A stretch of DNA of 47,129 nt, from positions 1 to 47,129 of the forward strand of contig PEUB01000118.1 in the NCBI GenBank assembly GCA_002780895.1, read 5' to 3'. The DNA comes from Nitrospirae bacterium CG02_land_8_20_14_3_00_41_53 (GTDB taxonomy: Bacteria; Nitrospirota; Thermodesulfovibrionia; Thermodesulfovibrionales; SM23-35). A program made the position numbers and the translations under genes. This document shows, piece by piece, positions 12,824 through 29,412 of the stretch. Position 1 is the first letter of the stretch, and each line of letters begins with the position of its first letter. The notes under the pieces are model-generated. The model made no database searches. It worked only from the letters and a program-made list of their open reading frames with translations, and was not told where the DNA came from.

Positions 12824-13825
12824 CTATCTCAGCATATACAGCAGCATAAGGTTAATCACATATACTAACACTATACCAATAGAATCCCATGCTAAAAATA
12901 ATAGCCTTTTTTCTGACCTGTAGGTTAAACCAATAATGGCAACAGTCGTCATCGCAATAGCGGACAGGGCAGATATTATATGATTTGGATTGACAAAAGA
13001 AAGAAGAGGTCCTTTGGTAAAAAAGATATCATCAATGGCAAGGATAAATATATTGAAGATATTACTGCCGAAGAGATTACCTATTGCAAGGTCTATTGCA
13101 TCTATTTTTACAGCTGATATAGAAACCACTACTTCTGGTAAGGATGTAGAAATTGCGATAAATATATTTCCCACAAAGGTTTGGCCAAGACCTGTGGTTT
13201 CTGCAATGCCTTCGCCAATCTTTGGCAAAAAAGTAGCAGCAATAATGACAACTAATGCATTAATACTATAGTTGACAATGGCGGTCTTTGTTAAAATGTC
13301 TTTATATTTCAATTCAACAGCCATTTCTTTCATATAAGCAGCAATCTGTCTCTTTTCATAAGAGAAGACCAGCTTAATTGCAATAAAATAAATAATCATA
13401 AATAACAGACTATATGGACCTATCCAGCCCAGAGGAGAGATAGACTTACCTAAAAATAGACTTATACCAACTATGCTCAAAAGAATTATTCCGAAACCAG
13501 CAGAAAGTATATGTCCCTGATGAGCCTTTGCAGATATTGGCATTATACGATATATAGCATCAAGAATGGCGATAATTAGCATATTAAATACGCAACTTCC
13601 AAGGACATCGCCAACAGCAATGTCAGGAACACCAGCATAGGTAACAGAGCTTATTCCGGTTACAAGTTCAGGAAGGGAAGTTACCGAGGCCATAAGAACT
13701 AAACCTATCCATGCCCTTCCAAGACCTGTCTTTTCAGCAATAATGTCGCCATATTTCGAGAGCTTTGTGCCTGAATATACAATTATAAGAGTACAAATAA
13801 TAAAGCCGATCCAGAGCAACATCAA
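12824..13825 (-). CDS. Sodium/calcium exchanger family (CaCA) antiporter
   Basis: This 333-residue, roughly ten-helix protein has an internal inverted duplication. The two alpha-repeat signatures are ASVTSLPELVTG...GDVLGSCVFNMLII in the first half and ISTSLPEVVVS...GNLFGSNIFNIFIL in the second. These acidic SLPE motifs bind cations in CaCA exchangers such as YrbG. It probably exchanges Ca2+ for Na+, H+ or K+. The start overlaps the stop of the upstream KefB-type antiporter (13822-13825), so the two transporters are coupled. Confidence 0.9.
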   Translation of the reverse strand: MMLLWIGFIICTLIIVYSGTKLSKYGDIIAEKTGLGRAWIGLVLMASVTSLPELVTGISSVTYAGVPDIAVGDVLGSCVFNMLIIAILDAIYRIMPISAKAHQGHILSAGFGIILLSIVGISLFLGKSISPLGWIGPYSLLFMIIYFIAIKLVFSYEKRQIAAYMKEMAVELKYKDILTKTAIVNYSINALVVIIAATFLPKIGEGIAETTGLGQTFVGNIFIAISTSLPEVVVSISAVKIDAIDLAIGNLFGSNIFNIFILAIDDIFFTKGPLLSFVNPNHIISALSAIAMTTVAIIGLTYRSEKRLLFLAWDSIGIVLVYVINLMLLYMLR

Positions 13826-15807
13826 GGTTCCCCTTTGAAGTATTTCAGTGCATCATGCAGGTTCTTTCTATCGCCAATAAAAAGAACAAAGTCCCGATCT
13901 TTAAGACGGAAATCAGGGTCGGTAACGGTATATACTTTCTGATTTCTCCTCACAGCTATAATAGTAACACCTGTTTTCTTCCTCACCTGAAGGTCTTTTA
14001 TAGTTTTTCCGCTTAAGTATGACCCCTCTGGTATTATGAATCCAGCTAACTCTATTTCTGGAAGCCATTCATATTCTTCGAAGAGATGCCTCTTTGGAAC
14101 ATCGATATTCCTTAATGTCGTATAACTATTACTCCTTATCTTTTCGACCATATCAATTATGATATTTCTTGGAAAGCTGTACTGATGCAATACCCTCGCA
14201 AATATCTCAATCGATGTCTCAAACTCCTCTGGTATTACTTCATCCGCACCAAGCTTTTTGAGGTCATCCACCTCAGCAACATATCGTGTTCTTACGATGA
14301 TATAAATATCAGGGTTTTCATGCCTTGCGATAGAAATGATCCTCCTCGAAGACGAAGGATCAGATATCGCAATGACGAGAAGCCTTGCCTTCTCGATACC
14401 GAGTTTATGCAGAATTTCTTTACTCGTGCCGTCACCGTAATATATTGGTTCTCCCTTTTTCTTCATATCTCTAACAGTATCGCTATTCATCTCAAGCACA
14501 ACATAAGATATTTCAGCTTCTCTTAATACCTTTGCAAGATTTCTTCCATTCAAACCGAAACCTACAATAATGACATGATCATGTTTCCTTCTTGGGAATC
14601 CCTCGCCTTCCGATGTCTTTTGCAGCCTGCTGAGACTTTTGAATATACGCCTCGATGTTATCCAGTCAGATACAGATGGAGCAAACTGTAATGTAAACGG
14701 AGTCAGTATCATTGTTACAACAGAAGAAGAAAGGAAAATCTGATAGAAATCATCTGTTATAATTCCCGATGTCTTTCCTGCAATCGCAAGCACAAAGGAA
14801 AACTCTCCGATCTGTGCAAGCCCGAGGCCTGCAAGCAGAGACGATCTCGGTGAAGTTCCAACAAGCAGGGCGGAAGCTGTTCCTGTAATTATCTTAAGTC
14901 CAAAAATAAACAAAACGATAGAGGCTATCTTAGGAGCATTGTTTAGAACGAACTCGATATTCATTAACATTCCTATGGAGACAAAAAACAGACCCATGAA
15001 ACTGTCTTTGAACGGCAATATATCTGAGATTGCCTGATGCGCATACTCTGATTCTGAAATTATTATGCCTGCTAAAAAAGCTCCAAGTGCAAGGGAAAGA
15101 CCAAACCTTGAAGTTAAAAGCGCTATGCCAAGGCAGAGAAGTATAATTGTAATTATAAAAAGTTCACGACTTCTTGTATGTACAACTTGATGAAGCAGGG
15201 AGGGAACTATCCATCTTGCACTCAGAAGTACAACCGCTATTATCAATATTGCCTTGCCAAATTTTATTACTATGTCCATTATGTTTATCCCATCACCAGA
15301 TAAAACAGGGGTAAGGAGCATAAGCGGTACAACACATAGGTCCTGGAAAATGAGTATTCCTACCATGATGTGTCCGTGAGGTGAGTCTATTTCGCCTTTC
15401 TCTGTGAGCATCTTTAATACGATAGCGGTACTGCTTAATGCGATAAGGAAACCAAAGAAGATAGATTTGTTGACATTTCCAGTAGCCAGATAGGCAGCAG
15501 CAGCCGATAAAACGATAGTAAGGAATACCTGTACGCTACCACCTCCTATAACAGCCTTTTTAATCCTGACAAGCTTTGCCATAGAAAACTCGATACCGAT
15601 AGTAAAAAGGAGTAGTATGACGCCGATTTCTGCGAGTGCCTCGATGGAGTGAGTGTTTCTTACTATCCCTATTCCGAAGGGCCCGATAATAACTCCAGCG
15701 ATGAGAAAGCCTACAAGAGATGGTATCTTCAACCTGTAAAGTAAAAATACCACTAAGGCAGAGACACCAAAGACGATGACCAATGATTTTAAGAATTCAT
15801 ATTCCAT
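13822..15807 (-). CDS. KefB/CPA2-type cation:proton antiporter with RCK domains
   Basis: This 661-residue protein comprises a Na+/H+-exchanger-type membrane domain (about 1-380, roughly 12 helices, with GFLIAGVIIGPFGIG and FFGFLIALSSTAIVLKML). A TrkA-N nucleotide-binding domain starts at VIIVGFGLNGRNLAKVL (about 413). A C-terminal TrkA-C/RCK domain ends in the RKKTGVTIIAVRRNQ segment. The layout is that of KefB/KefC-like K+(Na+)/H+ antiporters gated by NAD(H) or other ligands. It is co-translated with the CaCA exchanger through an ATGA overlap. The role in ion homeostasis is clear; the transported cation is not. Confidence 0.92.
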   Translation of the reverse strand: MEYEFLKSLVIVFGVSALVVFLLYRLKIPSLVGFLIAGVIIGPFGIGIVRNTHSIEALAEIGVILLLFTIGIEFSMAKLVRIKKAVIGGGSVQVFLTIVLSAAAAYLATGNVNKSIFFGFLIALSSTAIVLKMLTEKGEIDSPHGHIMVGILIFQDLCVVPLMLLTPVLSGDGINIMDIVIKFGKAILIIAVVLLSARWIVPSLLHQVVHTRSRELFIITIILLCLGIALLTSRFGLSLALGAFLAGIIISESEYAHQAISDILPFKDSFMGLFFVSIGMLMNIEFVLNNAPKIASIVLFIFGLKIITGTASALLVGTSPRSSLLAGLGLAQIGEFSFVLAIAGKTSGIITDDFYQIFLSSSVVTMILTPFTLQFAPSVSDWITSRRIFKSLSRLQKTSEGEGFPRRKHDHVIIVGFGLNGRNLAKVLREAEISYVVLEMNSDTVRDMKKKGEPIYYGDGTSKEILHKLGIEKARLLVIAISDPSSSRRIISIARHENPDIYIIVRTRYVAEVDDLKKLGADEVIPEEFETSIEIFARVLHQYSFPRNIIIDMVEKIRSNSYTTLRNIDVPKRHLFEEYEWLPEIELAGFIIPEGSYLSGKTIKDLQVRKKTGVTIIAVRRNQKVYTVTDPDFRLKDRDFVLFIGDRKNLHDALKYFKGEP

Positions 15808-16146: not shown

Positions 16147-16848
16147 TTACAGATGACTGATTTCATCCTTCTTCTCTTCTTCGCCCTTTATCTTCTTCTC
16201 CAGATACTCCTTTGCTATATCTCTCCCGCCAAGACCAAATGCTATTGCAAGGGCAAGGACTATGCCGCCAAAGATTATAGCAAAGGCAATAACTATTGTC
16301 CCCCTGCCGATGTCAAGCTGTTCGAGTGCCATTGTAACTGCAAGCAAAAATACAGTTAGCTTAACAAGTCTACCTACCAGGCCGGATACTTTCCATCCTG
16401 CATTTACAGCAGCAATCAGTGCGGCCCTCCCAAGAAAGTTGCTGAGGAGATAGCCAAAAAAGAGAATTATTACTGCAACAAAAATATTCGGCAAATAGAG
16501 GAAAAACCTTTCGAGTATCTGTTCGATAGCTGGCACATTAAGGGAACGAAGGGCTACAATAAAAAAAATAATTATTGTCAGCCAGCCGATCAACCTTGAA
16601 AGAATAAAAGATACAGGTTCTTTTATACCACCTTTTTTAAGAATCTCAACAAATCCATACCTCTCGGAAAATTTATCTACTTTTATTGTATTGAAGAACC
16701 TCAAAAACAGTTTTCTAAAAATCAAGCCAAGTACAATACCCAAGATAAAAATGAGTATGGAAGTAAGGATATCTGGTAGAAATTGTAGAACCCTCTCCCA
16801 AAACCTATCTAATGGTTCAATTATTACTTTCTTTAAAAAATCATTCAT
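16147..16848 (-). CDS. Conserved TM-helix (CmpX/MscS-related) membrane protein
   Basis: This 233-residue membrane protein has about four to five helices. It contains repeats of the conserved TM-helix type (PF05552-like): LPDILTSILIFILGIVLGLI near the N-terminus and LPNIFVAVIILFFGYLLSNF near the middle. The last helix is glycine-rich (IIFGGIVLALAIAFGLGGRD). Such proteins are related to small mechanosensitive channels but lack the full MscS beta domain. The ATG sits inside the last codons of the upstream glycosyltransferase gene (overlap 16841-16848). It is the last member of the seven-gene solute/osmo operon. Confidence 0.82.
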   Translation of the reverse strand: MNDFLKKVIIEPLDRFWERVLQFLPDILTSILIFILGIVLGLIFRKLFLRFFNTIKVDKFSERYGFVEILKKGGIKEPVSFILSRLIGWLTIIIFFIVALRSLNVPAIEQILERFFLYLPNIFVAVIILFFGYLLSNFLGRAALIAAVNAGWKVSGLVGRLVKLTVFLLAVTMALEQLDIGRGTIVIAFAIIFGGIVLALAIAFGLGGRDIAKEYLEKKIKGEEEKKDEISHL

Positions 16849-18239: not shown

Positions 18240-19148
18240 TCAAAAACTTTTCTTTTCATAAATTCCTTCAGATTGCGCAGTAATTGTCAACATATCCAGC
18301 GCTTGCGGAACCTCGCGGTAACTCTTCACATAAAACTTCGCCAATGTCTTCATCGATTTCCCAACCCGAATGGTTATCCCTTCTTCTGAAAGAACGCTAA
18401 AAGCATTCTCATCAGTCTGATCATCTCCTACATAGACTGGAAAACATTTATCCTTTATTGCTTTCAGGATTAATAGGGCCGCCTTGCCTTTGTCCCACGA
18501 TATATTAGGTACCAGCTCAAGAACCTTTTTCCCTTTTATTACGATTAACAATTTTTTATTTGAAAATCCCCCCTTACCCCCCTTTACTAAAGGGGGGATG
18601 GGGGGATTATTTTTTCTGCCCTTTGTGTTGCTATGTAATATGTTTGTCTCCTCTATGAATCTGGCAACAGTCTTATAGAAGGCTTTTTTCACAGATGAGA
18701 TATCTCCTTTTTTCACAGCACGAAAGTGAAGGGTGAGGGTAAATTTTTTATCCTCAAGCCATGTACCTTTGATATCTACAATCTCTTTTTCCAGCAGATG
18801 TTTTATTTTGAGAATAGTGGGTCTTGTTGATGAGGCTTTCGGGTGGGTGTATCTCATACCCGGGCCGGCAATGTCTATCCCGTGATTCCCTCCATAATAG
18901 ATACATGGAATACCGATTCTTTTTCTGATATCAGATAACTTTCTTCCGCTCAGGATAGATACATAACAGCCTTCAGAGTTTGCCAGTGATCGCAGTTGTT
19001 TTTTTATTTCAGGCATTAAAAAGCACTGTGCAGGGTCTTTCTGGATGGGAACCAGTGTTCCATCGAAATCTAAGAATAGAGCAATTTTTTGATCAGGCTT
19101 AATTAAGTCAGAGAGATTTTTACATTTGAATAAATATACTGGCGGCAT
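18240..19148 (-). CDS. otsB: Trehalose-6-phosphate phosphatase (OtsB)
   Basis: This 302-residue HAD phosphatase begins MPPVYLFKCKNLSDLI. It has the nucleophile motif FLDFDGTL (D27, D29), the S/T motif SILSGRKLSDI, the GNHG cap element and the C-terminal GDDQTDENAF. It hydrolyses trehalose-6-phosphate to trehalose and lies 5 bp after the GT20 synthase gene, the usual otsA-otsB pairing. Residues 180-196 (NNPPIPPLVKGGKGGF) are the in-frame palindromic element copy 2, sitting between the cap and the C-terminal catalytic loop. Without it the length would be normal, so the insert probably forms a surface loop. Confidence 0.92.
   Translation of the reverse strand: MPPVYLFKCKNLSDLIKPDQKIALFLDFDGTLVPIQKDPAQCFLMPEIKKQLRSLANSEGCYVSILSGRKLSDIRKRIGIPCIYYGGNHGIDIAGPGMRYTHPKASSTRPTILKIKHLLEKEIVDIKGTWLEDKKFTLTLHFRAVKKGDISSVKKAFYKTVARFIEETNILHSNTKGRKNNPPIPPLVKGGKGGFSNKKLLIVIKGKKVLELVPNISWDKGKAALLILKAIKDKCFPVYVGDDQTDENAFSVLSEEGITIRVGKSMKTLAKFYVKSYREVPQALDMLTITAQSEGIYEKKSF
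18565..18608. repeat. GC-rich palindromic element, copy 2 (inside otsB)
   Basis: The palindrome aatccccccttacccccctt ... aaggggggatggggggatt is read through on the minus strand as NPPIPPLVKGGKGGF. Confidence 0.9.
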
Positions 19149-19153
19149 AAGAT

Positions 19154-21424
19154 TTATTCACTCTGCTGCTCTATTGTCTCAGTCAATCGCAGTCGTGCTA
19201 ATGCTGTAATTAGGTCTCCTGCCCAGCGGTAAATATTGTGTTCTTTAACCACCTCACGCATCCGTTTCATACGTTCTGACCTTTCGTCAGGCGTCATCTT
19301 AAGTGATAAAAAAATGGCATCTGCCATTCCTTCAATATCATAGGGATTCACAATTACAGCGTCCTTTAGCTCTCGTGAAGCACCTGTAAACTGGCTGAGA
19401 ATTAATACACCGTCTTCATCATCACGGGATGAGACAAATTCCTTTGCAACAAGGTTCATACCATCATGCAGGGAAGTGACCATGCATATATCGGCTACTT
19501 TATAAAATGGATAGATCTCTTTATGGCTGTGATGCCCTTTAAGGAATACAATGGGCACCCATGTTTTTGTGTGGAAACGCCAATTAATCCTATCCACCAT
19601 CTCTTCCACCTCTGTCGTCAGGTCACGGTATCTTTTTATGTGTGTGCGGCTTGGTGCACCGAGTTCAACAAATGTAAATTCACCGCCAAACTCAGGGTAT
19701 TTTTCTAAAAATCTTTCAATTGCCGTGAATCGCTCAGGAATACCTTTGGTGTAATCAATCCTATCAACCCCGACACCCATATATTTTGCGTGAGCGCCGA
19801 TCTCTCTGAACAGTTTTTCCTTTATAGAGGCTCTTTCCTGTGTTGCGGCTGCTTTACTTAAGGTTCCGCCGTTAAAATCAACGCTTATAGGGAATGGTTT
19901 AACAAGGGTTGTGTGGCCGCCGCGCGTGATTGAGAACTGCTCCCAATCAACCTTGGATTCCAAAAATCTGTCAACAGTATCCAGAAAATTATTGCAGTGA
20001 AATTGTATATGAAAACTCAGGATGTTGGCTCCAAGCATGCCTATAAGAATTTCTTCCCGCCAGGGACAGATGCCATAGGACTCGGGATTCGGCCATGGGA
20101 TGTGCCAGAATAGCGACACCCGCGCATCAGGGCGCTTACTTTTAATCAGCATAGGAAGAAGAGCAAAGTGATAATCCTGAATTAAAATCAGAGGTGATTC
20201 TTCATTTTCAATTTCCTTGAACAAGGTCTCGGCAAATTTTTCATTTGTTCTCTGATACTGAATCCAGTCTTCCAGATGAAACAGAGGCCGTGTATGGGTG
20301 ATATGGCAGAGGGGCCATAGACCCTCATTTGAAAAGCCATAATAGTAGCCGTTTTCTTCCTCCTTGGTAAGCCATACCCTTTTGAGTGTATATGCCGGGT
20401 CTTCCGGCGGGACTCGAAGCTTATCATTCCCGTCCACTACATCGCGATCTGCATATCCACTGCCGTTCGCAATCCACACACCTTCGCAGACCCGCATCAC
20501 AGGGTCTAATGCAGTAACCAATCCGCCGGCAGGCACAATGCATTTGATACTGCTTCTCTCTCTGATATGCATGTATGGCTCTCTATTTGAAACAAGGAAT
20601 ATTTTATTTCCGCTCAGTTCAGCGCGTATATGTTCTTTAAGCTTGCCTGCCGTCCAGACGGATTCTGTGCGAAGGCGCAGTTTAGCTTCATCCTCTTTTT
20701 TTGCATGTGCCATAGCAAGGTTTTTTGCCAGATGGGTAACCTCAGAAATTAAAGGGGCAAGCACATCTCCTCTCGGAGAAACCACAGATTGACCCATTTT
20801 CCCTCTTCCCATCCGTAACTCCCTCATCCATTCTGCAACACGAGCTATAGGGCCTGTGATGCTCCATCGGATTGCAAGCAGGGTAATCAAGGCAATCAAG
20901 GTTGACAATATGACGAAGCGGAGGAGGTTATTTTTCCATATCTCTTCAAGTCTCACGCCGATATATGAGGCGTCATGGAAGAGCACCAGCGTCCCTGTGA
21001 TTTTATCCTCCTCCGAAAAAGGAAGGGCATAGAAATATGTTTCTTTGTCATCAATGCGCATAAGGCTGCCGACAGGTTGATTTTCTGCAACAGATTTCAC
21101 TGCCAGAGGTAATGGCTGTGGAATTTTCAGAGCGAGATCAGGGGTTAAGGCTAAGACATTCCCTTGCTGGTCATAAACAGCTACTCCTTCGAGTCTCTCA
21201 CGATTTCCAAATCGTTCTACAAGACGATTCAATTTTTGTAGAGAATTGGACTGAACCAAAGGGACTACTGATTCCTGCAGGCTTTTTGCCAGGATAATGG
21301 CCCTGCGCTGCAAATCAGCGGTCATACGCATTTTTTCAGCTCTGACCTCATAGAACGAAAACCCGACAGCTACCAGAGCTACTATAAAAATAAGGGAAAC
21401 AATTAACCTGATTGTAATTTTCAT
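19154..21424 (-). CDS. otsA: Membrane sensor-HAMP-GT20 fusion: trehalose-6-phosphate synthase
   Basis: This is a 756-residue fusion. The N-terminus is built like a receptor: membrane helix 1 (about 5-24), an extracytoplasmic sensor-like domain (30-165, with GVAVYDQQGNVLAL and YFYALPFSEED), helix 2 (168-186) and a HAMP-like linker (187-240, ITGPIARVAEWMRELR). From about 273 the protein is a complete GT20 enzyme: FLVSNREPY, IQDYHFALLP, LFWHIPWPNPE, GVGVDRIDYTKGIPERF, and LHDGMNLVAKEFVSSR. Ordinary OtsA enzymes are about 450-500 residues and soluble. The extra 270 residues would place trehalose-6-phosphate synthesis at the membrane under a sensory domain. It lies 2 bp after the TreT gene and 5 bp before otsB. 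Confidence 0.9.
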   Translation of the reverse strand: MKITIRLIVSLIFIVALVAVGFSFYEVRAEKMRMTADLQRRAIILAKSLQESVVPLVQSNSLQKLNRLVERFGNRERLEGVAVYDQQGNVLALTPDLALKIPQPLPLAVKSVAENQPVGSLMRIDDKETYFYALPFSEEDKITGTLVLFHDASYIGVRLEEIWKNNLLRFVILSTLIALITLLAIRWSITGPIARVAEWMRELRMGRGKMGQSVVSPRGDVLAPLISEVTHLAKNLAMAHAKKEDEAKLRLRTESVWTAGKLKEHIRAELSGNKIFLVSNREPYMHIRERSSIKCIVPAGGLVTALDPVMRVCEGVWIANGSGYADRDVVDGNDKLRVPPEDPAYTLKRVWLTKEEENGYYYGFSNEGLWPLCHITHTRPLFHLEDWIQYQRTNEKFAETLFKEIENEESPLILIQDYHFALLPMLIKSKRPDARVSLFWHIPWPNPESYGICPWREEILIGMLGANILSFHIQFHCNNFLDTVDRFLESKVDWEQFSITRGGHTTLVKPFPISVDFNGGTLSKAAATQERASIKEKLFREIGAHAKYMGVGVDRIDYTKGIPERFTAIERFLEKYPEFGGEFTFVELGAPSRTHIKRYRDLTTEVEEMVDRINWRFHTKTWVPIVFLKGHHSHKEIYPFYKVADICMVTSLHDGMNLVAKEFVSSRDDEDGVLILSQFTGASRELKDAVIVNPYDIEGMADAIFLSLKMTPDERSERMKRMREVVKEHNIYRWAGDLITALARLRLTETIEQQSE

Positions 21425-21426
21425 GT

Positions 21427-22638
21427 TTAAATTTCTATTATACTCCTACCTTTGTTTTCCATTATATACCATACCCCAAGATAATCCCTTATCTGCCTTG
21501 TTATAAGAAAGTTCTTTCTTACATATTCCCTGCCATTTTCACCAATCCTTTTCGCCATTTCTATATTGTTTAATAACTGCCTTGTCCTGAATGCAGCACC
21601 TTCAATTGAATGCACAAGGAACCCTGTAACACCATGTATTATCTGAAGGGGAATTCCTCCTACAGCACCGCCTATTACCGGTTTTCCCTTCCACATAGAC
21701 TCAGATACTGTAAGACCGAAACCTTCTTTTAAGGATTTCTGCAGAACAACAGCTGCTACTCTCTGCAAAGCATTGATATCCTTATCACTGAAAGGCGGTA
21801 ATAAAAGGATGTATATATCAGGGTCGTTAGCTGCGCACTCCTTCACCTCATTTAAGACTATTTCTCCCTCCGGGTCATCGGTGGCAGGGCTCCCTGCAAG
21901 GATAAGAATGCAATCATTATATTTCTTCACAATCCTGTAAGCCTTTATTACACCTATTGGGTCTTTGAATCTGTCAAAACGGGATACCTGAAGGATTATC
22001 GGTCTGTTAGTTGGTATCTGAAATTTATTCAATGTTTTATTAATTTCTTCATCCGTTAACTCCCTGTTTTTTTCACTGACAGGATCGATAGATGGCGAAA
22101 CGATAAACTCATCAATTCCCATTTTCCTGGCAAATTTTGCAACAGAGAAAATAGCAGCGGTGTACTTTTCGCAGTATCTGCAGAGGTAATCACTTACTTC
22201 CTTCTTCGGATTTGATACATCAATATGACATCTCCACATCCATAATCCACTTTTTTTGAATTCTATGAGTGGAGCCGGCTGAGGATCATGAATCAAAACA
22301 GCATCTGCTTCAAGGTCCAGTTTGTCTGCGTTCTTACCGTTTATTTCATAGTGATAATCCCACATCTTTTTGGTTATCCTTTCAGGGTTGCCCTGCATTG
22401 CGTTATGAATCTTTTTTGTAATATTGAAAAATTTCGTGTCGCCTTCGATAATCTCCCATCTTGCTTGAATGCCTATCTCAGTAAACATAGGTATCATCCT
22501 CTGCAGGATCTCTGCCACGCCTCCCCCTTCACGGGTAGAGCTAACGTGAAGAAAAGACCTTTTATGTAACTTTTCACCTAGCATCTGCAAAAGTAACAAA
22601 TCACTCTTGGGGGATATTCCTAAATACTGGTCAAACAT
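21427..22638 (-). CDS. treT: GT4 trehalose synthase (TreT-like)
   Basis: This 403-residue GT-B enzyme has N-terminal motifs HVSSTREGGGVAEILQRMIP and VLIHDPQPAPLI. The C-terminal nucleotide-sugar domain has ILQVSRFDRFKDPIGVIKAY, LILAGSPATDDPEGE and VLQKSLKEGFGLTVSESMWK. These are the marks of trehalose glycosyltransferring synthase, which joins NDP-glucose and glucose directly, without a phosphate intermediate. It overlaps the DUF5752-like gene upstream by 19 bp and is followed within 2 bp by the GT20 fusion, so two independent trehalose routes are in one operon. A glycosyltransferase with another acceptor remains possible. Confidence 0.85.
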   Translation of the reverse strand: MFDQYLGISPKSDLLLLQMLGEKLHKRSFLHVSSTREGGGVAEILQRMIPMFTEIGIQARWEIIEGDTKFFNITKKIHNAMQGNPERITKKMWDYHYEINGKNADKLDLEADAVLIHDPQPAPLIEFKKSGLWMWRCHIDVSNPKKEVSDYLCRYCEKYTAAIFSVAKFARKMGIDEFIVSPSIDPVSEKNRELTDEEINKTLNKFQIPTNRPIILQVSRFDRFKDPIGVIKAYRIVKKYNDCILILAGSPATDDPEGEIVLNEVKECAANDPDIYILLLPPFSDKDINALQRVAAVVLQKSLKEGFGLTVSESMWKGKPVIGGAVGGIPLQIIHGVTGFLVHSIEGAAFRTRQLLNNIEMAKRIGENGREYVRKNFLITRQIRDYLGVWYIMENKGRSIIEI

Positions 22639-23306
22639 CTGCTAACAACCTCCATATCTTTTTTCACTTCTTCTTCAACTGTTTCAACGATATGAGTACG
22701 TATTTCCTCTATGGTATGCATAAATGGATCTATAGCCCTTATTTTCTCTGCAAGCTCCTTTTTTTGAAGATAATCTTCAATCCAACGGGAAAAATCATCT
22801 ATCCCGCCTCCAAGACGCATCCTTGCTTCGTAGAAATGATAGTAGATTGATCCTGCATCTATATATTTAATGGCAGTAAGAAATTCTGCAAGGTTTTTCG
22901 CTCTTGTCCCCACAGGGAATATGAGTGTAACCGTTTCGTTAAAGCAGAATTCATCACCGCGCATAGCCTCTCTCGGCTCAGGAAATTGCCCAAGATAATT
23001 GTCTATTACCTCTATAAGCTTATTTCTTAAGTCACTTATATTCTTAAAATCATACGGGTCTATATTTGAAAGCTGTTCTGACAAAGCTCTTTCCTCAAGA
23101 CTCTCTCCTGCCCAGTGCGCAAAGTCATTTGTATATTCAAGGATATGTCCTTTCAGGAAATACTGATATGTATGATGAAATATGGATTCATCGCTTACTG
23201 CCGATATGGCATCCCTCAATTCATGCAGATTCCTTGCCTTCTTTCCTGTAGATTTAAGGATGCTAACGCATTGCCTGAATTCAAAGGAATTAGTTATTTC
23301 TGCCAA
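22620..23306 (-). CDS. DUF5752-like protein with two tandem domains
   Basis: This soluble 228-residue protein has two similar halves. FEFRQCVSILKSTGKKARNL ... FHHTYQYFLKG ... DFAHWAGESLEERALSEQL corresponds to FCFNETVTLIFPVGTRAKNL ... YYHFYEARMRLGG ... DFSRWIEDYLQKKELAEKI. Each half ends in a helix of the type IDPxxxxxIxxLR. This matches my memory of DUF5752 proteins, which are found beside trehalose synthases; a database check is needed. The start is TTG at 23306 after GAGAGGA. It overlaps both the MscS gene and the TreT gene, so it is tightly coupled to both. The function is unknown; a regulatory or scaffold role for solute synthesis is inference. Confidence 0.75.
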   Translation of the reverse strand: MAEITNSFEFRQCVSILKSTGKKARNLHELRDAISAVSDESIFHHTYQYFLKGHILEYTNDFAHWAGESLEERALSEQLSNIDPYDFKNISDLRNKLIEVIDNYLGQFPEPREAMRGDEFCFNETVTLIFPVGTRAKNLAEFLTAIKYIDAGSIYYHFYEARMRLGGGIDDFSRWIEDYLQKKELAEKIRAIDPFMHTIEEIRTHIVETVEEEVKKDMEVVSRCLTSI

Positions 23307-24331
23307 TCTTTTTCCTCTCTGAGATAGACAGTTCTGTGCGGAAATGGTATCTCTATTCCTTCTTCTTTGAACCTCTTAAAAATCCTCTTTCTTAGCTCAT
23401 GCTGCGCAAGGTACTGGTCAACGAATTCCTGAACCTGACAGATGAGTGTAAAATTAAGGGAGCTATCTCCAAAGCCCGGAATGAAACGTACAAAAGGCTC
23501 CGGGTCTCCAAGCAGTCCTGGGATTTCGCCGACAGCCTTTTTTGTCTCTTCAATGAGTATCCTTTCAACCCTTTCAGGGTCAGAAGAATAACTCACTCCT
23601 ATAGGAATCAGCAGGGACATCCTCTTTTCAGGGAGATAATAATTGGTCACAACGCTCTGCGAAAGCTTGCTGTTCGGGATTATGACTGTGTTGTTAGGAA
23701 GCATCCTTACCCTCGTTGTCCTCCATGTAATATCCTCCACATAGCCTTCCTGTCCTGTCTCAAGTTTTATGAAGTCTCCAACCCTTATGGATTTTTCGAC
23801 AAGTATATGGATTCCTGCAAAAAGGTTTGCCAGCGTGTCCTGAAGTGCAAGGGCAACCGCAAGACCTCCAACTCCAAGAGCAGTAATAAGTGGAGTTATG
23901 GAAACGCCGAGGAAACTGAGTATTATCAGAAAACCGACAACAAGAATCGTGCCTTTCAATATTCCATATGCAAGTCCTGTAGTAGGAATGGGCAGGTCTA
24001 ATTTCTGAATATAATTTTTGGATATTTTACCTGATAGACTTGCAGCAGCAATAGTAATGGATAGTATTACAATTATGTGAATTGCCCTGCTGAAATAAAA
24101 CACATATTTTTCAGGGAAATCGGAGACAGCGACACCTATGTAAAGTCCAATGGCAATGCACCAGTAAATGGACGGCACCTTTAATGCCTTGATGATTATA
24201 TCGTCAACCTTAGTCTCTGTCCTTTCCGCCCACTTGTGAAGCAGTTTGAAGGCGATATACCTCACCATAAGTAGAAAAACTGCCGATACGAATGCTATAA
24301 TAGCAAGGATAAAGAGTGCTTTTAAATTCAT
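23294..24331 (-). CDS. mscS: Small-conductance mechanosensitive channel (MscS family)
   Basis: This is a 345-residue protein. I start at the ATG at 24331 (MNLKALFILAIIAF), which is 11 nt after AGGAGG; the frame can extend to a TTG at 24340. Four membrane helices precede the pore helix TALGVGGLAVALALQDTLANLFAGIHI and the beta domain (VGDFIKLETGQEGYVEDITW, MLPNNTVIIPNSKLSQSVV). A C-terminal alpha/beta domain ends in IPFPHRTVYL. MscS channels open on membrane tension and release solutes during hypo-osmotic shock. As the first gene of an operon that makes trehalose, it couples release and synthesis of solutes. It overlaps the DUF5752-like gene by 13 bp. Confidence 0.93.
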   Translation of the reverse strand: MNLKALFILAIIAFVSAVFLLMVRYIAFKLLHKWAERTETKVDDIIIKALKVPSIYWCIAIGLYIGVAVSDFPEKYVFYFSRAIHIIVILSITIAAASLSGKISKNYIQKLDLPIPTTGLAYGILKGTILVVGFLIILSFLGVSITPLITALGVGGLAVALALQDTLANLFAGIHILVEKSIRVGDFIKLETGQEGYVEDITWRTTRVRMLPNNTVIIPNSKLSQSVVTNYYLPEKRMSLLIPIGVSYSSDPERVERILIEETKKAVGEIPGLLGDPEPFVRFIPGFGDSSLNFTLICQVQEFVDQYLAQHELRKRIFKRFKEEGIEIPFPHRTVYLREEKDWQK

Positions 24332-24392
24332 ATCTATCAACTCCTCCTGTCTCTATAAATAACTATCATGGCTGTTATATCCGGATGCTAAT

Positions 24393-24627: not shown

Positions 24628-24786
24628 TTATTTATTATCTTCATCTACCGCTTTCCTTATCATATTAAGTATATCAGGTATTGCAGACGTAACCCTGTCC
24701 CAGCCTGCAATCAATGGCACACCGAGGGGATCTTCCGTTATTTTCTGTGCAGCCAGTTTAATTCCGTTTGTAAAGGTTTCCACCGC
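24628..24786 (-). pseudogene. Displaced ancestral C-terminus of gpgS
   Basis: If one 14-bp copy of the duplication is removed, the gpgS frame continues SLAVETFTNGIKLAAQKITE and runs on through PLGVPLIAGWDRVTSAIPDI and LNMIRKAVDEDNK to TAA at 24628-24630. The segment is 50 or so well-formed residues that the present frame no longer reaches. Confidence 0.8.
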
Positions 24787-25850
24787 AAGGTTTCCACCGC
24801 AAGGCTTTCCGCGTGCCTGTCGAACACTATGCTGTTTATTGCAGCATCGTCTTCGTATCTCTTAAGCATATCCTGAGCTGTCCTCGTATATGTCGCTACA
24901 AGTGTCTTAAAAAATCCGTCAGAAAAGACTATCCCTTCAGAGGCAAGCGTTCTAAAGAGAGTCTTGCATATATCAACACACATTTTATTAAGCCCTTTTG
25001 TTGCATCTTCAGGTGATAGTTCCTGATGCTTATGCTCATAATTTTCCGCGATATCAACTTGACAGACTCTTCTTGTTGATATATTCCTGTATACTTCTGC
25101 AAGAACACCAATCTCTAATCCCCAGTCTCCGGGAATCCTGTTTACCCTTGCAAGGTCAACATCCATCGAAAACTCACCTGCAAGGGGATACCTGAAGCTG
25201 TCAAAAAATACAAGTATCGGTAAATAACCTAAAATTTTCTGTAGTGACCTTATGAGTGGTGTAAGAAGGAGCCGTGTCATCCTTCCATGAAGTCTGTCGG
25301 TTACCCTGCTGTAATACCCTTTGCAGAAATCATAATCAAGATTTGGATTCGCAACCGGATAACACAAACGCGCAAGTAGATCTCTGCTATACGTGAGTAT
25401 GTCACAATCATGGAGCACTATCTCATGGGAATACTGTTCAGAAAGGATATAACCATACGCCATCCATGTAGACCTTCCCTTGCCTGGCTCTCCCACAGGC
25501 AAATCAGCCCTCTCAATGGTCTTATATATTTCACTCATTCTTGAACCACTATTCCAGATAATGCCTGTCTTCTGCGGAAGTACAGAGAAAAATTCCTTTG
25601 TATGCTTGAATTCTTCCTCTGAGGCAGGGCCGAGTGTCACTATAACTTCTTTTATGTATTTGACTTCCTGAAGTTCTCTGACAATACCCTTTAATGCATC
25701 TCCTTCCAGTTCACTGTAAAGAGACGGCAGCACAAGGGCGATAGGCCTTTGCTGGGCATACCATGTTAATTCGGCCTCTATCTTCTCAAGATTAGTCCTG
25801 CCGAGCCTGTGAAAAGTTGCAACAACGCCTGTCTGATAAAAATCCGACAT
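24738..25850 (-). CDS. gpgS: Glucosyl-3-phosphoglycerate synthase, C-terminus frameshifted
   Basis: This GT81-type enzyme starts MSDFYQTGVVATFHRLGRTN at the ATG at 25850, after GGAGGTG; a longer frame to 25943 is not needed. Motifs seen: PIALVLPSLYSEL, the loop GKGRSTWMAYGYIL, the metal-binding segment VLHDCDILTY, and PLAGEFSMDVDLARVNRIPGDWGLEIGVLAEVY. It transfers glucose (or mannose) from an NDP-sugar to 3-phosphoglycerate. The product would be dephosphorylated by the MpgP-type enzyme encoded divergently. A 14-bp tandem duplication at 24773-24800 shifts the frame, so the last 14 residues (from LRWKPLQTEL) replace about 50 native ones. The catalytic domain is intact, so activity is possible but uncertain. 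Confidence 0.85.
   Translation of the reverse strand: MSDFYQTGVVATFHRLGRTNLEKIEAELTWYAQQRPIALVLPSLYSELEGDALKGIVRELQEVKYIKEVIVTLGPASEEEFKHTKEFFSVLPQKTGIIWNSGSRMSEIYKTIERADLPVGEPGKGRSTWMAYGYILSEQYSHEIVLHDCDILTYSRDLLARLCYPVANPNLDYDFCKGYYSRVTDRLHGRMTRLLLTPLIRSLQKILGYLPILVFFDSFRYPLAGEFSMDVDLARVNRIPGDWGLEIGVLAEVYRNISTRRVCQVDIAENYEHKHQELSPEDATKGLNKMCVDICKTLFRTLASEGIVFSDGFFKTLVATYTRTAQDMLKRYEDDAAINSIVFDRHAESLAVETLRWKPLQTELNWLHRK
24773..24804. repeat. 14-bp tandem duplication in gpgS
   Basis: aaggtttccaccgc occurs twice in a row (24773-24786, 24787-24800) followed by aagg. Fourteen is not a multiple of three, so the duplication causes the frameshift. Confidence 0.92.
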
Positions 25851-25964
25851 CTTACACCTCCGTTGAGTCTCTGCTAAAAAGGAAATACAAGTTATTTGAT
25901 TGCTGCCTGTTAAGAGTATAACGGCTATAAAATTGATGGTCAAGAAAAATCGCCCTCTCTTTAG

Positions 25965-25970
25965 TATAAT
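25965..25970 (+). promoter_or_regulatory. TATAAT box 6 nt before glycerate kinase ATG
   Basis: TATAAT lies 6 nt before the ATG at 25977 with no Shine-Dalgarno in between, so the mRNA would start at or near the A of ATG. The 126-bp gap to the divergent gpgS is the shared promoter region. No convincing -35 was seen. Confidence 0.55.
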
Positions 25971-25976
25971 TCAATC

Positions 25977-27362
25977 ATGAGCAGCGCAAATCAAATAGTT
26001 GCTGAAATATTTACTGCTGCATTGCGGTCTGTTGATTCTTATGAATCAGTAAAACTCCATACAGATAAAATCAGGCAATCTTATCAAAATGGCAGCTTTA
26101 AAAAACTAATCGTTGTTGGTTTTGGCAAGGCAGCGGTTCCAATGGCAAAGGCGGTAGAAGACGATTTGACGGATATAATTGACACTGGAGTTGTAATTAC
26201 GAAATATGGACACTGTTCCTCAACCGATAAATATATAATCCCCCAATCCACCCCTTTTTCAAATCCCCCCTCACCCCCCTTTGCTAAAGGGGGGCTGGGG
26301 GGATTATTAGGTGAAAAAATAAAAATTGTTGAAGCAGGTCATCCAGTGCCTGATGAAAGCGGATTAAGAGCTACAGAGGAAATAATAAACCTCCTTAAAG
26401 GTGCAGATGAAAACACTCTTCTTATATGCCTAATCTCTGGCGGTGGTTCTTCCCTGCTCGTTTCTCCTTATAATGGCATTACTCTCGATGGAAAAAAGAA
26501 GATTACTGAACTGCTCCTCAAAGCCGGTGTAAATATCTACGAACTTAATAACGTAAGAAAGCATATATCGAAAGTAAAAGGGGGAAGACTTGCCGAGATT
26601 GCTCATCCTGCAAAGGTTGTATCGCTTATCCTTTCTGATGTTGTCGGCGACAACCTTGATGTCATTGCCTCTGGCCCGACATCGTCCGACAGCACGACCT
26701 ACACGGATGCCCTGAAGGTTTTAAAAAAATACCGGTTAATGGAACAGATTCCCCTGAATGTCATTGATCTGCTGAATCGTGGGAGAGACGGTCTGATTCC
26801 TGAAACCCCCAAGGAAGGGGATCCCATTTTTGAACAGGTGGAAAACATAATTATCGGAAGTAACAAAAAAGCGTTGGAAGGTGCAAAGATAAAAGCAGAA
26901 TTCCTGGGATTCAACACAGAAATAATTTCTTCAGAAATTACAGGCGAAGCGAAAGAAGCCGGTAAATGGCTTGCTCAAAAGGCTATCGAAGTTCAGAGAG
27001 GGGAGCATTACAGGAAACCGGTTTGTTTCATTTCAGGAGGTGAAACAACTGTTACTGTGAGAGGAGCCGGCAAAGGCGGAAGGAATATGGAGTTGGCGCT
27101 CTCTTTTGCAATGGAGGTCGAAGGATTTGACGGGATCACGTTCCTTTCTGCAGGTACTGACGGAACAGACGGGCCGACAGATGCAGCAGGGGCAATAATT
27201 GATGGGCAGACAGTCGCAAGGGCAAAGGCTATCGGTCTTGACCCCGGAACATATCTGGAGAATAATGATTCCTATAATTTCTTTAAACAGATCAATGAAC
27301 TTTTCATAACAGGCCCGACAGGCACAAATGTAATGGATATTCAGATAATGGTGATAGAATGA
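25977..27362 (+). CDS. gckA: Glycerate 2-kinase (GckA/TtuD, DUF4147 family)
   Basis: This is a 461-residue protein of the glycerate kinase type-2 family. It has the N-terminal GFGKAAVPMAKAVE, the catalytic glycine-rich LISGGGSSLLVSPYNGITL, the lysine region NNVRKHISKVKGGRLAEIA and SLILSDVVGDNLDVIASGPT. The C-terminal domain has FISGGETTVTVRGAGKGGRN and FLSAGTDGTDGPTDAAGA. It phosphorylates glycerate to 2-phosphoglycerate and could recycle glycerate from glucosylglycerate breakdown. Residues 96-110 (NPPSPPFAKGGLGG) are palindromic element copy 3 in an N-domain loop. Its stop overlaps the phosphatase start (ATGA). It is transcribed divergently from gpgS. Confidence 0.92.
   Translation: MSSANQIVAEIFTAALRSVDSYESVKLHTDKIRQSYQNGSFKKLIVVGFGKAAVPMAKAVEDDLTDIIDTGVVITKYGHCSSTDKYIIPQSTPFSNPPSPPFAKGGLGGLLGEKIKIVEAGHPVPDESGLRATEEIINLLKGADENTLLICLISGGGSSLLVSPYNGITLDGKKKITELLLKAGVNIYELNNVRKHISKVKGGRLAEIAHPAKVVSLILSDVVGDNLDVIASGPTSSDSTTYTDALKVLKKYRLMEQIPLNVIDLLNRGRDGLIPETPKEGDPIFEQVENIIIGSNKKALEGAKIKAEFLGFNTEIISSEITGEAKEAGKWLAQKAIEVQRGEHYRKPVCFISGGETTVTVRGAGKGGRNMELALSFAMEVEGFDGITFLSAGTDGTDGPTDAAGAIIDGQTVARAKAIGLDPGTYLENNDSYNFFKQINELFITGPTGTNVMDIQIMVIE
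26262..26305. repeat. GC-rich palindromic element, copy 3 (inside glycerate kinase)
   Basis: The palindrome aatcccccctcaccccccttt ... ggggggctggggggatt reads NPPSPPFAKGGLGG. A degenerate half copy (aatcccccaatccacccctt) directly precedes it at 26237-26258. Confidence 0.9.
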
Positions 27363-28252
27363 AAAATATTATCATATTCACAGACCTTGATGGAACGCTT
27401 TTAGATTACTCCACATATTCTTTTGAAAAGGCGCTGCCTGCCCTCCAATTGCTGAAAGAGAAGGACATCCCGCTTATTATCTGTTCAAGTAAAACCAAAA
27501 AAGAGATAGAGTATTACAGAAGGAAACTCGATAACCACCATCCTTTTATATCAGAGAACGGCGGAGGGATATTCATACCAAAAGAATATTTTAAGTTTGA
27601 AGTTCAAAATTCATATAATCCCCCATCATCCCCCTTTAGCAAAGGGGGGCTGGGGGGATTTTCAGAAGAAAATGACTACCAAGTTATTAAGCTTGGTGCA
27701 CAATACAATGACTTAAGAAAAGCAATCGAAGAACTTCGTAAAGAAGGTTTTGATATTAAAGGGTTCGGTGATATGACCGTGCATGAGCTTGCAGAGACGG
27801 CAAACATGACAATAGAAGAGGCTGAAATGGCAAAGGAGCGGTATTTTGACGAACCATTTATTTACAGCGGACCTTCTCACAAACTGCCGCAGCTCTTGAA
27901 ATCCATCAATGAAAAAGGTTTCAAGTTTACGCAGGGCAGATTCTATCATATCCTCGGCAGCAGCAACAAAGGCATTGCTGTTTCCATACTTACAGATTTA
28001 TACAAAAATAAATATAAACAAATTACGACCATTGCTATCGGCGACAGTCCTAATGATATCCCCATGCTTGAAAGGGTTGATTATCCTGTTATCGTTCAAA
28101 AACATGACGGCAGTTATGACAGCAAAATTAAAATTCCACGCATCATTAAAGCAAATGAAAGCGGTCCTGAGGGTTGGAATAAGGCTGTTTTAAATAAATT
28201 CTCTAAATCTTCAGCGCATAATACCTCAGCCAGACATATACCGTTAAAATAA
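27359..28252 (+). CDS. mpgP: Mannosyl/glucosyl-3-phosphoglycerate phosphatase (HAD)
   Basis: This 297-residue HAD-superfamily phosphatase has the nucleophile motif FTDLDGTLLDYSTY, the S/T motif IICSSKTKKEIE, the FISENGGGIFIP element and the C-terminal AIGDSPNDIPML. These are diagnostic of the mannosyl-3-phosphoglycerate phosphatase family. It would remove the phosphate from the GpgS product to give glucosyl- or mannosylglycerate. It is co-translated with the glycerate kinase (ATGA overlap at 27359-27362) and encoded next to gpgS. Residues 87-101 carry palindromic element copy 4 (NPPSSPFSKGGLGGF), placed in the cap domain. Confidence 0.92.
   Translation: MKNIIIFTDLDGTLLDYSTYSFEKALPALQLLKEKDIPLIICSSKTKKEIEYYRRKLDNHHPFISENGGGIFIPKEYFKFEVQNSYNPPSSPFSKGGLGGFSEENDYQVIKLGAQYNDLRKAIEELRKEGFDIKGFGDMTVHELAETANMTIEEAEMAKERYFDEPFIYSGPSHKLPQLLKSINEKGFKFTQGRFYHILGSSNKGIAVSILTDLYKNKYKQITTIAIGDSPNDIPMLERVDYPVIVQKHDGSYDSKIKIPRIIKANESGPEGWNKAVLNKFSKSSAHNTSARHIPLK
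27617..27660. repeat. GC-rich palindromic element, copy 4 (inside mpgP)
   Basis: The palindrome aatcccccatcatcccccttt ... ggggggctggggggatt reads NPPSSPFSKGGLGGF. Confidence 0.9.
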
Positions 28253-28254
28253 CA

Positions 28255-29412
28255 TTAGATATCCCATTTAATATAGTTTCTTATTACAAATGGGGTAAAC
28301 ATTGTGGTTAGCAAAGACATTGCTACGATTGAAACATAGACATCCTGCTTGATTATATTAGAGGTCAGTCCTATTAATGCAACTATCATCGCAACTTCGC
28401 CGCGTGGAGACATCCCGAATCCAATAACTAATGATTCGGTTTTATTGAATCCTGCCAGCCTTGATGCAATACCGCAGCCGGCAACCTTACTGAATACTGC
28501 AACCAGCAATAATGTTATAAAAAATGGCAATATGCCGGGAGTTAACTCTCTAAGATTTGCAAGGATCCCAAGACTGATGAAGAATATAGCCCCGAAGATT
28601 ACATGAAAATACCCTGCCCCGTCTTTTAGGTCTTTGCTGTTTTTAAATCTTATGCCTTCCAGCGCTGCGCCTGCCAGGAATGCTCCAACAATTGCCGACA
28701 AACCGACTAGTTCTGCGACAGAGGCGTAGAAGAAACAGAACATTATTGCAATAATAAATAAAAGATGTGGATGCTTTTTTGCGAACCTCGCTTCATCCAA
28801 TCTTAAAAATATTTTCTTTATATAAGGGGCAGTGAATATGCCGGCAAATAAAAAGACTATGGACTCTATTGCTATTATTAATACCCCTATGACTGCTATA
28901 TTCTCTGCCCGCGTACTTTGAACTGTAATTGACAGCGCTAATAAGCCAAGCACATCGTCTATAACCGCTGCGCCGATTATTGCCTTTGCCGCAGGGGTAT
29001 GCAGTTTTTTCATTTCCTGCAGTACGCTTGCGGTAATAGCAATACTTGTCGCTGTCAAAGCTACGCCTATAAACATTGATTCCTTAAAATTATAGCTAAA
29101 TAAATTCCCCAAGAAATAACCTGCCGCCCACGGTACGATGGCTCCGATTAATGCTATAAACATATATTTTATCTGATAGACATCTTTAATCTTAAATTCA
29201 AGGCCTATTGCGAATAAAAGCATTATTGCCCCGAGGTGTGCAAGCATCTTAACGGCATCACTGTATTGAACAATAGAAAAAATGCTGGGGCCGATTATTA
29301 TTCCGATAATAATTATACCGACTACTGCCGACTGGTTAATCCTTGACGCCAGAAGATAGCCCGCAAGCGCAAACAGCAGGATTACACTTATTTGTAATTC
29401 AAGGGATGTCAT
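28255..29412 (-). CDS. CPA2-type cation:proton antiporter, membrane domain only
   Basis: This 385-residue membrane protein of about 12 helices has the Na+/H+ exchanger signatures GIIIGPSIFSIVQ, LGAIMLLFAIGLEF and the substrate-site region AIIGAAVIDDVLGLLALS, where the paired aspartates suggest an electrogenic cation:2H+ type. It has no TrkA/RCK domain, unlike the KefB-type protein at 13822. It ends convergently with the phosphatase gene (2-bp gap). A TATAAT lies about 34 nt upstream of the ATG, a normal leader length. Na+ or K+ specificity is unknown. Confidence 0.9.
   Translation of the reverse strand: MTSLELQISVILLFALAGYLLASRINQSAVVGIIIIGIIIGPSIFSIVQYSDAVKMLAHLGAIMLLFAIGLEFKIKDVYQIKYMFIALIGAIVPWAAGYFLGNLFSYNFKESMFIGVALTATSIAITASVLQEMKKLHTPAAKAIIGAAVIDDVLGLLALSITVQSTRAENIAVIGVLIIAIESIVFLFAGIFTAPYIKKIFLRLDEARFAKKHPHLLFIIAIMFCFFYASVAELVGLSAIVGAFLAGAALEGIRFKNSKDLKDGAGYFHVIFGAIFFISLGILANLRELTPGILPFFITLLLVAVFSKVAGCGIASRLAGFNKTESLVIGFGMSPRGEVAMIVALIGLTSNIIKQDVYVSIVAMSLLTTMFTPFVIRNYIKWDI

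What the first reader, a model, noticed from the sequence alone, without database searches (positions are those of the whole stretch)
19154..21424. Receptor-like N-terminus fused to trehalose-6-phosphate synthase
A two-helix membrane anchor with a 135-residue extracytoplasmic domain and a HAMP-like linker precedes a complete GT20 domain with all catalytic motifs. HAMP linkers normally pass signals to kinases, cyclases or chemoreceptors. Here the output would be synthesis of an osmolyte, a one-protein osmosensor-enzyme. It sits in an operon headed by MscS.
Basis: partly seen in the sequence, partly recalled or inferred. Interest (0 to 1): 0.77.

Follow-up and report, generated by a model that had tools for sequence, protein, structure and literature searches.

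The report
Membrane receptor fused to trehalose-phosphate synthase
A bacterial gene joins the outside-facing sensor and signal-passing linker of a membrane receptor directly to the enzyme that makes the stress sugar trehalose, suggesting that the cell senses a stress (most likely osmotic) and makes its protectant with a single protein.

Summary
Residues 1-258 are TM1, a ~135-residue extracytoplasmic Cache-type domain (model pLDDT 93; closest solved fold WalK, Z 16.7), TM2, a divergent HAMP linker (profile-profile E 1e-9, although below Pfam's cut-off) and a short coiled coil. Residues 259-745 are a GT20 trehalose-6-phosphate synthase; 14 catalytic positions are intact in 90 of 90 non-redundant relatives. 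The architecture is not local: full-length relatives come from about ten named phyla and form one clade on my tree. Segment lengths from TM2 to the first HAMP helix and from the second HAMP helix to the enzyme are locked, the one large change being exactly seven residues, while sensor and HAMP connector vary, as expected if a signal is passed mechanically. Three relatives lost the sensor but kept the HAMP-coil spacing. The operon is MscS-DUF5752-TreT-TPS-TPP and holds the genome's only detected MscS, GT20 and TPP genes. Another member of the phylum fuses an MscS channel directly to a GT20. Ten literature searches found no report of a Cache-HAMP-GT20 protein. Control of the enzyme by the receptor is inferred; the osmotic stimulus is plausible but untested.

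The parts
19154..21424 (-). Receptor-type trehalose-6-phosphate synthase, 756 aa (P0001)
21350..21418 (-). TM1 (about residues 3-25)
   Evidence: hydropathy; helix 2-58 in model
20945..21343 (-). Extracytoplasmic single Cache (PAS-like) sensor domain, about residues 28-160
   Evidence: AF2 model pLDDT 93, pTM 0.86; Foldseek 5is1 E 2.4e-6; VIA Z 16.7 to 4ywz_B; sCache_3_2 below cut-off
20864..20932 (-). TM2 (about residues 165-187)
   Evidence: hydropathy; W163-to-P192 spacing 29 in 90 of 90 rows
20699..20863 (-). Divergent HAMP linker, residues 188-242 (AS1 to ~204, connector 205-222, AS2 from ~223)
   Evidence: profile-profile E 9.6e-10; sub-threshold Pfam hit at 20807-20872; helix-connector-helix in model
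20651..20698 (-). Coiled-coil continuation of AS2 and junction with invariant W257, residues 243-258
   Evidence: length-locked; helix 223-253 then break
19190..20650 (-). N-terminal helix 259-270 and GT20 catalytic domain, residues 259-745
   Evidence: Pfam; catalytic residues; OtsA/Tps1 fold
18240..19148 (-). Trehalose-6-phosphate phosphatase (OtsB type), 5 nt downstream; only TPP gene found in this genome
21427..22638 (-). TreT-type trehalose synthase (GT4), 2 nt upstream
   Evidence: PF21269 E 1.9e-51; NF041139 below its cut-off
22620..23306 (-). DUF5752 protein, function unknown, overlaps both neighbours
   Evidence: PF19027 E 2.8e-65
23294..24340 (-). MscS mechanosensitive channel heading the operon; only PF00924 gene found in this genome
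16841..18124 (-). Family-2 glycosyltransferase, weakly like glucosyl-3-phosphoglycerate synthase; possible continuation of the operon
16147..16848 (-). MscS-type transmembrane protein without beta domain (PF05552)

Best explanation
It is a one-component transmembrane receptor whose output is a metabolic enzyme. SHOWN by computation: Cache-type sensor outside, two TM helices, divergent HAMP, coiled coil, then an intact GT20 trehalose-6-phosphate synthase inside, in an operon with MscS, TreT and TPP. INFERRED: the protein works as a parallel dimer held by HAMP and coil. A change in the Cache domain or the surrounding membrane moves TM2; HAMP converts it into a shift of the coil; the coil ends at W257, 22 residues before the S279-N280-R281 loop whose arginine corresponds to the G6P-binding arginine of OtsA (role recalled), so the signal opens or closes the active site. 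T6P is then dephosphorylated by the adjacent TPP. Most likely stimulus: hyperosmotic or envelope stress, with MscS as the release valve on downshift.
For: HAMP by profile-profile comparison with two controls. Cache fold. Catalytic residues 90 of 90 and OtsA/Tps1 fold. In 90 non-redundant rows W163-P192 (29), P192-G206 (14) and W257-S279 (22) never vary; E228-R250 is 22 in 87 of 90 and 15 (minus one heptad) in the 3 Nitrospira-type rows, while the HAMP connector has 6 lengths and the sensor 12. Three sensor-less relatives keep E228-W257 at 29. TPP found in 71, TreT in 51, DUF5752 in 49 of 109 loci. MscS directly upstream on the same strand in 7 of 99 loci with enough flank, 6 non-redundant. The genome's only MscS, GT20 and TPP genes lie in this operon. 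An MscS-GT20 fusion exists in another member of the phylum.
Against: No direct evidence that activity depends on the N-terminus, or of what is sensed. HAMP and Cache lie below curated Pfam cut-offs. The seven-residue change is a single clade, so one event; 7 rows have +1 and one row -2, all next to the helix break. In Nitrospira-type rows the HAMP proline is lost. The sensor is poorly conserved (29% mean pairwise identity against 60% for GT20). HAMP confidence in the model is modest (block pLDDT 63-80). MscS was found in only 19 of 109 loci, although flanks are often short and one query was used.
Confidence: 0.62

Rival explanations
1. The N-terminus is only a membrane anchor that places the synthase beside MscS, TreT or the envelope; Cache and HAMP are inherited from a receptor but no longer signal.
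For: Sensor weakly conserved; HAMP degenerate in Nitrospira-type rows; three relatives lost the sensor and keep a TM helix.
Against: Exact length-locking of TM2-AS1 and AS2-coil-enzyme against a variable connector and sensor; purifying selection on the sensor; sensor-less variants keep the HAMP-coil spacing; a soluble TPS-TPP occupies the same slot after TreT without an anchor (L011).
Confidence: 0.2
2. The receptor controls the synthase but the signal is a chemical ligand (periplasmic metabolite, solute or cell-wall product), not osmolarity or tension.
For: The closest folds include ligand-binding Cache domains: CitA, DcuS, DctB. Sensor divergence would fit different ligands.
Against: Repeated MscS linkage and an MscS-GT20 fusion; the best fold match is WalK, which NCBIfam names a cell wall metabolism sensor kinase.
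Confidence: 0.3
3. Regulation is mainly through a protein complex with TreT, as for the TPSP-GT complex of Thermoproteus tenax, with the membrane part only modulating assembly.
For: PMC3634074 (abstract, three sections and passages read): msc-gt-tpsp operon, the GT4 protein required for TPS activity. The window has MscS, a GT4-type TreT and TPS in one operon.
Against: TreT was not found in 58 of 109 loci, many with short flanks; in that paper activation needed the TPS-TPP fusion, which this protein lacks.
Confidence: 0.15
4. An internal start near residue 250 yields a soluble synthase and the N-terminus is rarely made.
For: Some candidate start codons with purine-rich upstream bases (codons 205, 210, 221).
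Against: They lie inside HAMP; dN/dS of the N-terminal parts is low and 101 full-length rows keep them.
Confidence: 0.04

Closest known systems
OtsA / GT20 trehalose-6-phosphate synthases (E. coli OtsA, fungal Tps1)
   Same: Fold, catalytic residues, phosphatase partner gene
   Different: OtsA has no sensor; here a Cache-TM-HAMP receptor and an extra N-terminal helix precede the enzyme; OtsA F157 corresponds to W444 in all 101 rows
Cache/PAS-HAMP sensor kinases such as WalK
   Same: TM-sensor-TM-HAMP layout; WalK extracytoplasmic domain is the best fold match
   Different: Output is a glycosyltransferase; no kinase domain
Thermoproteus tenax msc-gt-tpsp operon and trehalose synthase complex (PMC3634074)
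   Same: Mechanosensitive channel, GT4 protein and TPS in one operon; proposed osmotic stress response
   Different: There TPS is fused to TPP; no sensor or HAMP is described in the parts read. That paper states that no other prokaryotic TPS gene showed a comparable operon, which this window and its relatives contradict
Bifunctional TPS-TPP proteins of the same order (L010-L016)
   Same: Related GT20; in L011 directly after TreT
   Different: No receptor; L011 read as TPS-TPP, with the TPP part at the C-terminus

Membership tests
GT20 trehalose-6-phosphate synthase | Full-length GT20 domain over Pfam cut-off | tested here: met
   393.8 bits against 32.5
GT20 trehalose-6-phosphate synthase | Catalytic and substrate-binding residues of OtsA (list recalled) | tested here: met
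   14 of 14 positions invariant in 90 of 90 rows
GT20 trehalose-6-phosphate synthase | Makes T6P from NDP-glucose and G6P | not testable with these tools
   Supported only indirectly by the adjacent TPP
HAMP linker | Two amphipathic helices joined by a connector after a TM helix, with AS1 Pro, Gly and AS2 Glu | tested here: met
   Profile-profile E 9.6e-10 over 65 columns; P192 86, G206 77, E228 85 of 90 rows; helices in model
HAMP linker | Single-sequence score over the Pfam cut-off (a detection threshold, not a biological feature) | tested here: not met
   12.7 against 25 bits; at best 14.9 in 9 relatives scanned. I therefore call it a divergent HAMP
HAMP linker | Parallel four-helix bundle in a dimer that relays signals | not testable with these tools
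   Only a monomer model available
Extracytoplasmic Cache domain | Long N-terminal helix plus central beta sheet, between two TM helices | tested here: met
Extracytoplasmic Cache domain | Ligand bound in the pocket | not testable with these tools
Osmosensor | Activity changes with osmolarity, ionic strength or membrane tension | not testable with these tools
   Context only

The most novel reading that the evidence does not exclude
A self-contained osmosensor-osmolyte synthase: a HAMP receptor family whose output is a central metabolic glycosyltransferase, bypassing transcription and phosphorelay. It would be ancient, spread over about ten phyla, with a parallel solution in which an MscS channel itself is fused to the same enzyme, so that membrane tension could directly gate trehalose-6-phosphate synthesis.
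Probability: 0.4. Interest if true: 0.88.

Novelty: new variant of a known kind. Interest (0 to 1): 0.75.

Why it matters
HAMP receptors are known to drive kinases, cyclases, chemoreceptors and other signalling outputs (recalled). A HAMP-controlled biosynthetic enzyme would mean that a bacterium can turn an outside stimulus straight into a protectant without a gene-expression step. It makes a long-standing question testable in one purified protein: how a cell senses osmotic stress and couples it to compatible-solute synthesis. It also gives HAMP research a continuous enzymatic readout, and gives a family from poorly cultured phyla a concrete proposed function.

Tried and rejected
Single-sequence Pfam and NCBIfam scans for HAMP: only sub-threshold matches, so I used profile-profile comparison. 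An internal start was checked and rejected. Rfam found nothing in the window. The promoter and terminator scan was no better than shuffles: 30 promoter-like sites against 25.1 expected, 5 terminator-like sites against 7.9. A search for further MscS-GT20 fusions gave one in 394 genomes of the phylum; its nearest relative by tree, in G255, is a separate synthase with no MscS recognised by eye among the five ORFs of its 7-kb stretch. The GT20 of this family might have been a glucosylglycerol-phosphate synthase: TIGR02398 scores 289 bits against a cut-off of 569, lower than OtsA TIGR02400 at 423, and the phosphatase next door is of the trehalose type, so I rejected that. The tree is quick, has SH-aLRT support only, has a very long outgroup branch, and its unfused rows come from one phylum plus E. 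coli, so a single origin of the fusion is provisional. Literature: ten searches gave no paper on this architecture in an open-access library, judged from titles and abstract starts apart from the one paper read; subscription journals and preprints were not searched, and public domain databases may list the architecture. Rows dropped: L058 (deletion that removes TM2 and AS1) and L069 (no start found, probable frameshift) were left out of the 101-row alignment by hand, and contig-cut or sensor-less rows (L047, L094, L099, L100, L103, L110, L111) by length; spacing in these 9 was checked apart: E at -29 from W in 8 of 9, L094 lacking the region. L007 (cut by a contig end) and duplicate fetches of one place (L001, L002, L112-L114, L122) were also left out. 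Several of the 101 rows are near-duplicates, hence the 90-row counts.

Full report
WHAT IS THERE. The ORF at 19154-21424 is on the minus strand and encodes 756 aa. It sits 2 nt after a TreT-type GT4 gene and 5 nt before an OtsB-type phosphatase; further upstream are overlapping genes for DUF5752 and MscS. In this genome, rated 100% complete, GT20, the MscS beta domain and trehalose phosphatase each occur once, all in this operon (the phosphatase is reported as two pieces of one ORF, split where a repeat element is inserted).

N-TERMINUS. Two hydrophobic helices flank about 135-140 residues. An AlphaFold model of residues 27-166 from 70 rows has pLDDT 93.2 and pTM 0.86; Foldseek puts WalK (5is1) first at E 2.4e-6, then KinD, GSU0935, DcuS and others; VIA gives Z 16.7, 2.5 A over 135 residues to WalK and about 13 to CitA and DcuS. 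Sequence profiles agree: WalK E 0.0022 with 70 sequences and 5.4e-4 with 7. This is a single Cache (extracytoplasmic PAS) domain.

HAMP. Pfam HAMP scores only 12.7 bits on the window protein, at the correct place, and none of 9 relatives scanned reaches the cut-off. I compared a profile of residues 176-254 (88 rows) with a profile of the seven HAMP domains of this genome that pass the cut-off: probability 96.5, E 9.6e-10, score 47.8 over 65 columns, in register from the end of TM2 through AS2. Forty column-shuffled profiles scored at most 16.6; windows elsewhere in the protein that do not overlap the HAMP region scored at most 13.9. The full-length model (pLDDT 90.4, pTM 0.70) shows helix 153-204, a connector, helix 223-253, a break and helix 259-270 before the first strand of the enzyme.

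ENZYME. The GT20 part matches OtsA and Tps1 structures with TM about 0.87 by target length. Fourteen positions that correspond to catalytic or substrate residues of OtsA (the list is recalled) are invariant in 90 of 90 non-redundant rows.

DISTRIBUTION. Of 61 genomes of the same family and order, 8 (the window's own included) hold a match that begins at residue 1 and runs into GT20, one of them cut by a contig end. Among 395 genomes of the phylum I counted by hand, in a listing that was cut off, 24 strong matches beginning at residue 1 (one cut by a contig end), and 74 weaker ones, all in one family, with ORFs of 700-838 aa; only six of the 74 were read in full (L133-L138). Of the 80 best named genome records, 73 match from residue 22 or earlier; record titles name Acidobacteriota, Omnitrophota, Elusimicrobiota, Nitrospirota, Rokuibacteriota, Bacteroidota, Gemmatimonadota, Methylomirabilota, Myxococcota and Patescibacteria-type groups. 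Most are metagenome bins, so single labels may be wrong. On a quick tree, 83 of 83 receptor-type rows, three sensor-less ones included, form one fully supported branch apart from 19 unfused rows and the MscS fusion.

COUPLING. In 90 non-redundant rows W163-P192 is 29, P192-G206 is 14 and W257-S279 is 22 without exception; E228-R250 is 22 in 87 and 15 in 3; E228-W257 is 29 in 79, 30 in 7, 22 in 3 and 27 in 1. The HAMP connector G206-E228 has six lengths and the sensor twelve. The +1 and -2 cases lie between R250 and W257, at the predicted helix break. Hydropathy of residues 222-253 peaks at periods of 3.3-3.5 (permutation p 0.013 at 3.5). Three relatives lack the sensor (L100, L103, L111; L111 shows one TM helix only) yet keep E at -29 from W, as do five further rows outside the alignment. 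This is what a mechanical relay would need. It is not proof, and the heptad deletion is one clade.

CONTEXT. In 109 loci, many cut short, TPP is found in 71, TreT in 51 and DUF5752 in 49; at least one of TPP, TreT, DUF5752 and MscS in 87. MscS lies directly upstream within 300 nt on the same strand in 7 of 99 loci with at least 1 kb of flank, 6 of them non-redundant, and elsewhere in the neighbourhood in others, 19 of 109 in all. In G206, of the same phylum, a 722-aa ORF joins an MscS beta domain (E 8e-11, over cut-off) to GT20 (E 3.5e-120): a second joining of a membrane-stress protein to this enzyme, seen once in 394 genomes.

LITERATURE. PMC3634074 (abstract, sections 17, 22 and 25, and passages) describes the msc-gt-tpsp operon of Thermoproteus tenax, in which a GT4 protein activates the synthase in a complex, and says that no comparable operon exists elsewhere. 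The present operons extend that association to bacteria. None of the ten searches listed a paper on a Cache-HAMP-GT20 protein.

VERDICT. A real, widespread and, as far as these searches reach, undescribed receptor-enzyme family. Control of the enzyme by the receptor is the best reading (about 0.62 for the full statement); osmotic sensing is likely but untested.

Noticed in passing
L150 minus strand 681-2849 (G206:C1:76180-78348): In-frame fusion of an MscS-type channel (TM region plus beta domain) to GT20, 722 aa; the only one seen in 394 genomes of the phylum.
   Followed up: partly
window 18565-18620, 26262-26317, 27617-27672 and further copies: Palindromic CCCCCCTTTACTAAAGGGGGG-type repeat, 7-9 copies in the window; three copies lie inside open coding genes (TPP, glycerate kinase, HAD phosphatase), and the copy in TPP splits its Pfam match in two.
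   Followed up: partly
window 24738-28252: Probable glucosylglycerate pathway beside the trehalose operon: GpgS-like protein, glycerate 2-kinase and a HAD phosphatase; two cation:proton antiporter-type genes also lie nearby (13822-15807, 28255-29412).
   Followed up: no
window 22620-23306: DUF5752, of unknown function, is found with TPS in 49 of 109 loci, usually beside TreT; a candidate new part of trehalose metabolism.
   Followed up: no
L100, L103, L111: Receptor-type synthases without the sensor domain, keeping TM and HAMP; natural sensor-loss variants.
   Followed up: partly
L058 2973-5102: A 710-aa variant in which TM2 and most of the first HAMP helix are missing; natural deletion or assembly error.
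   Followed up: no
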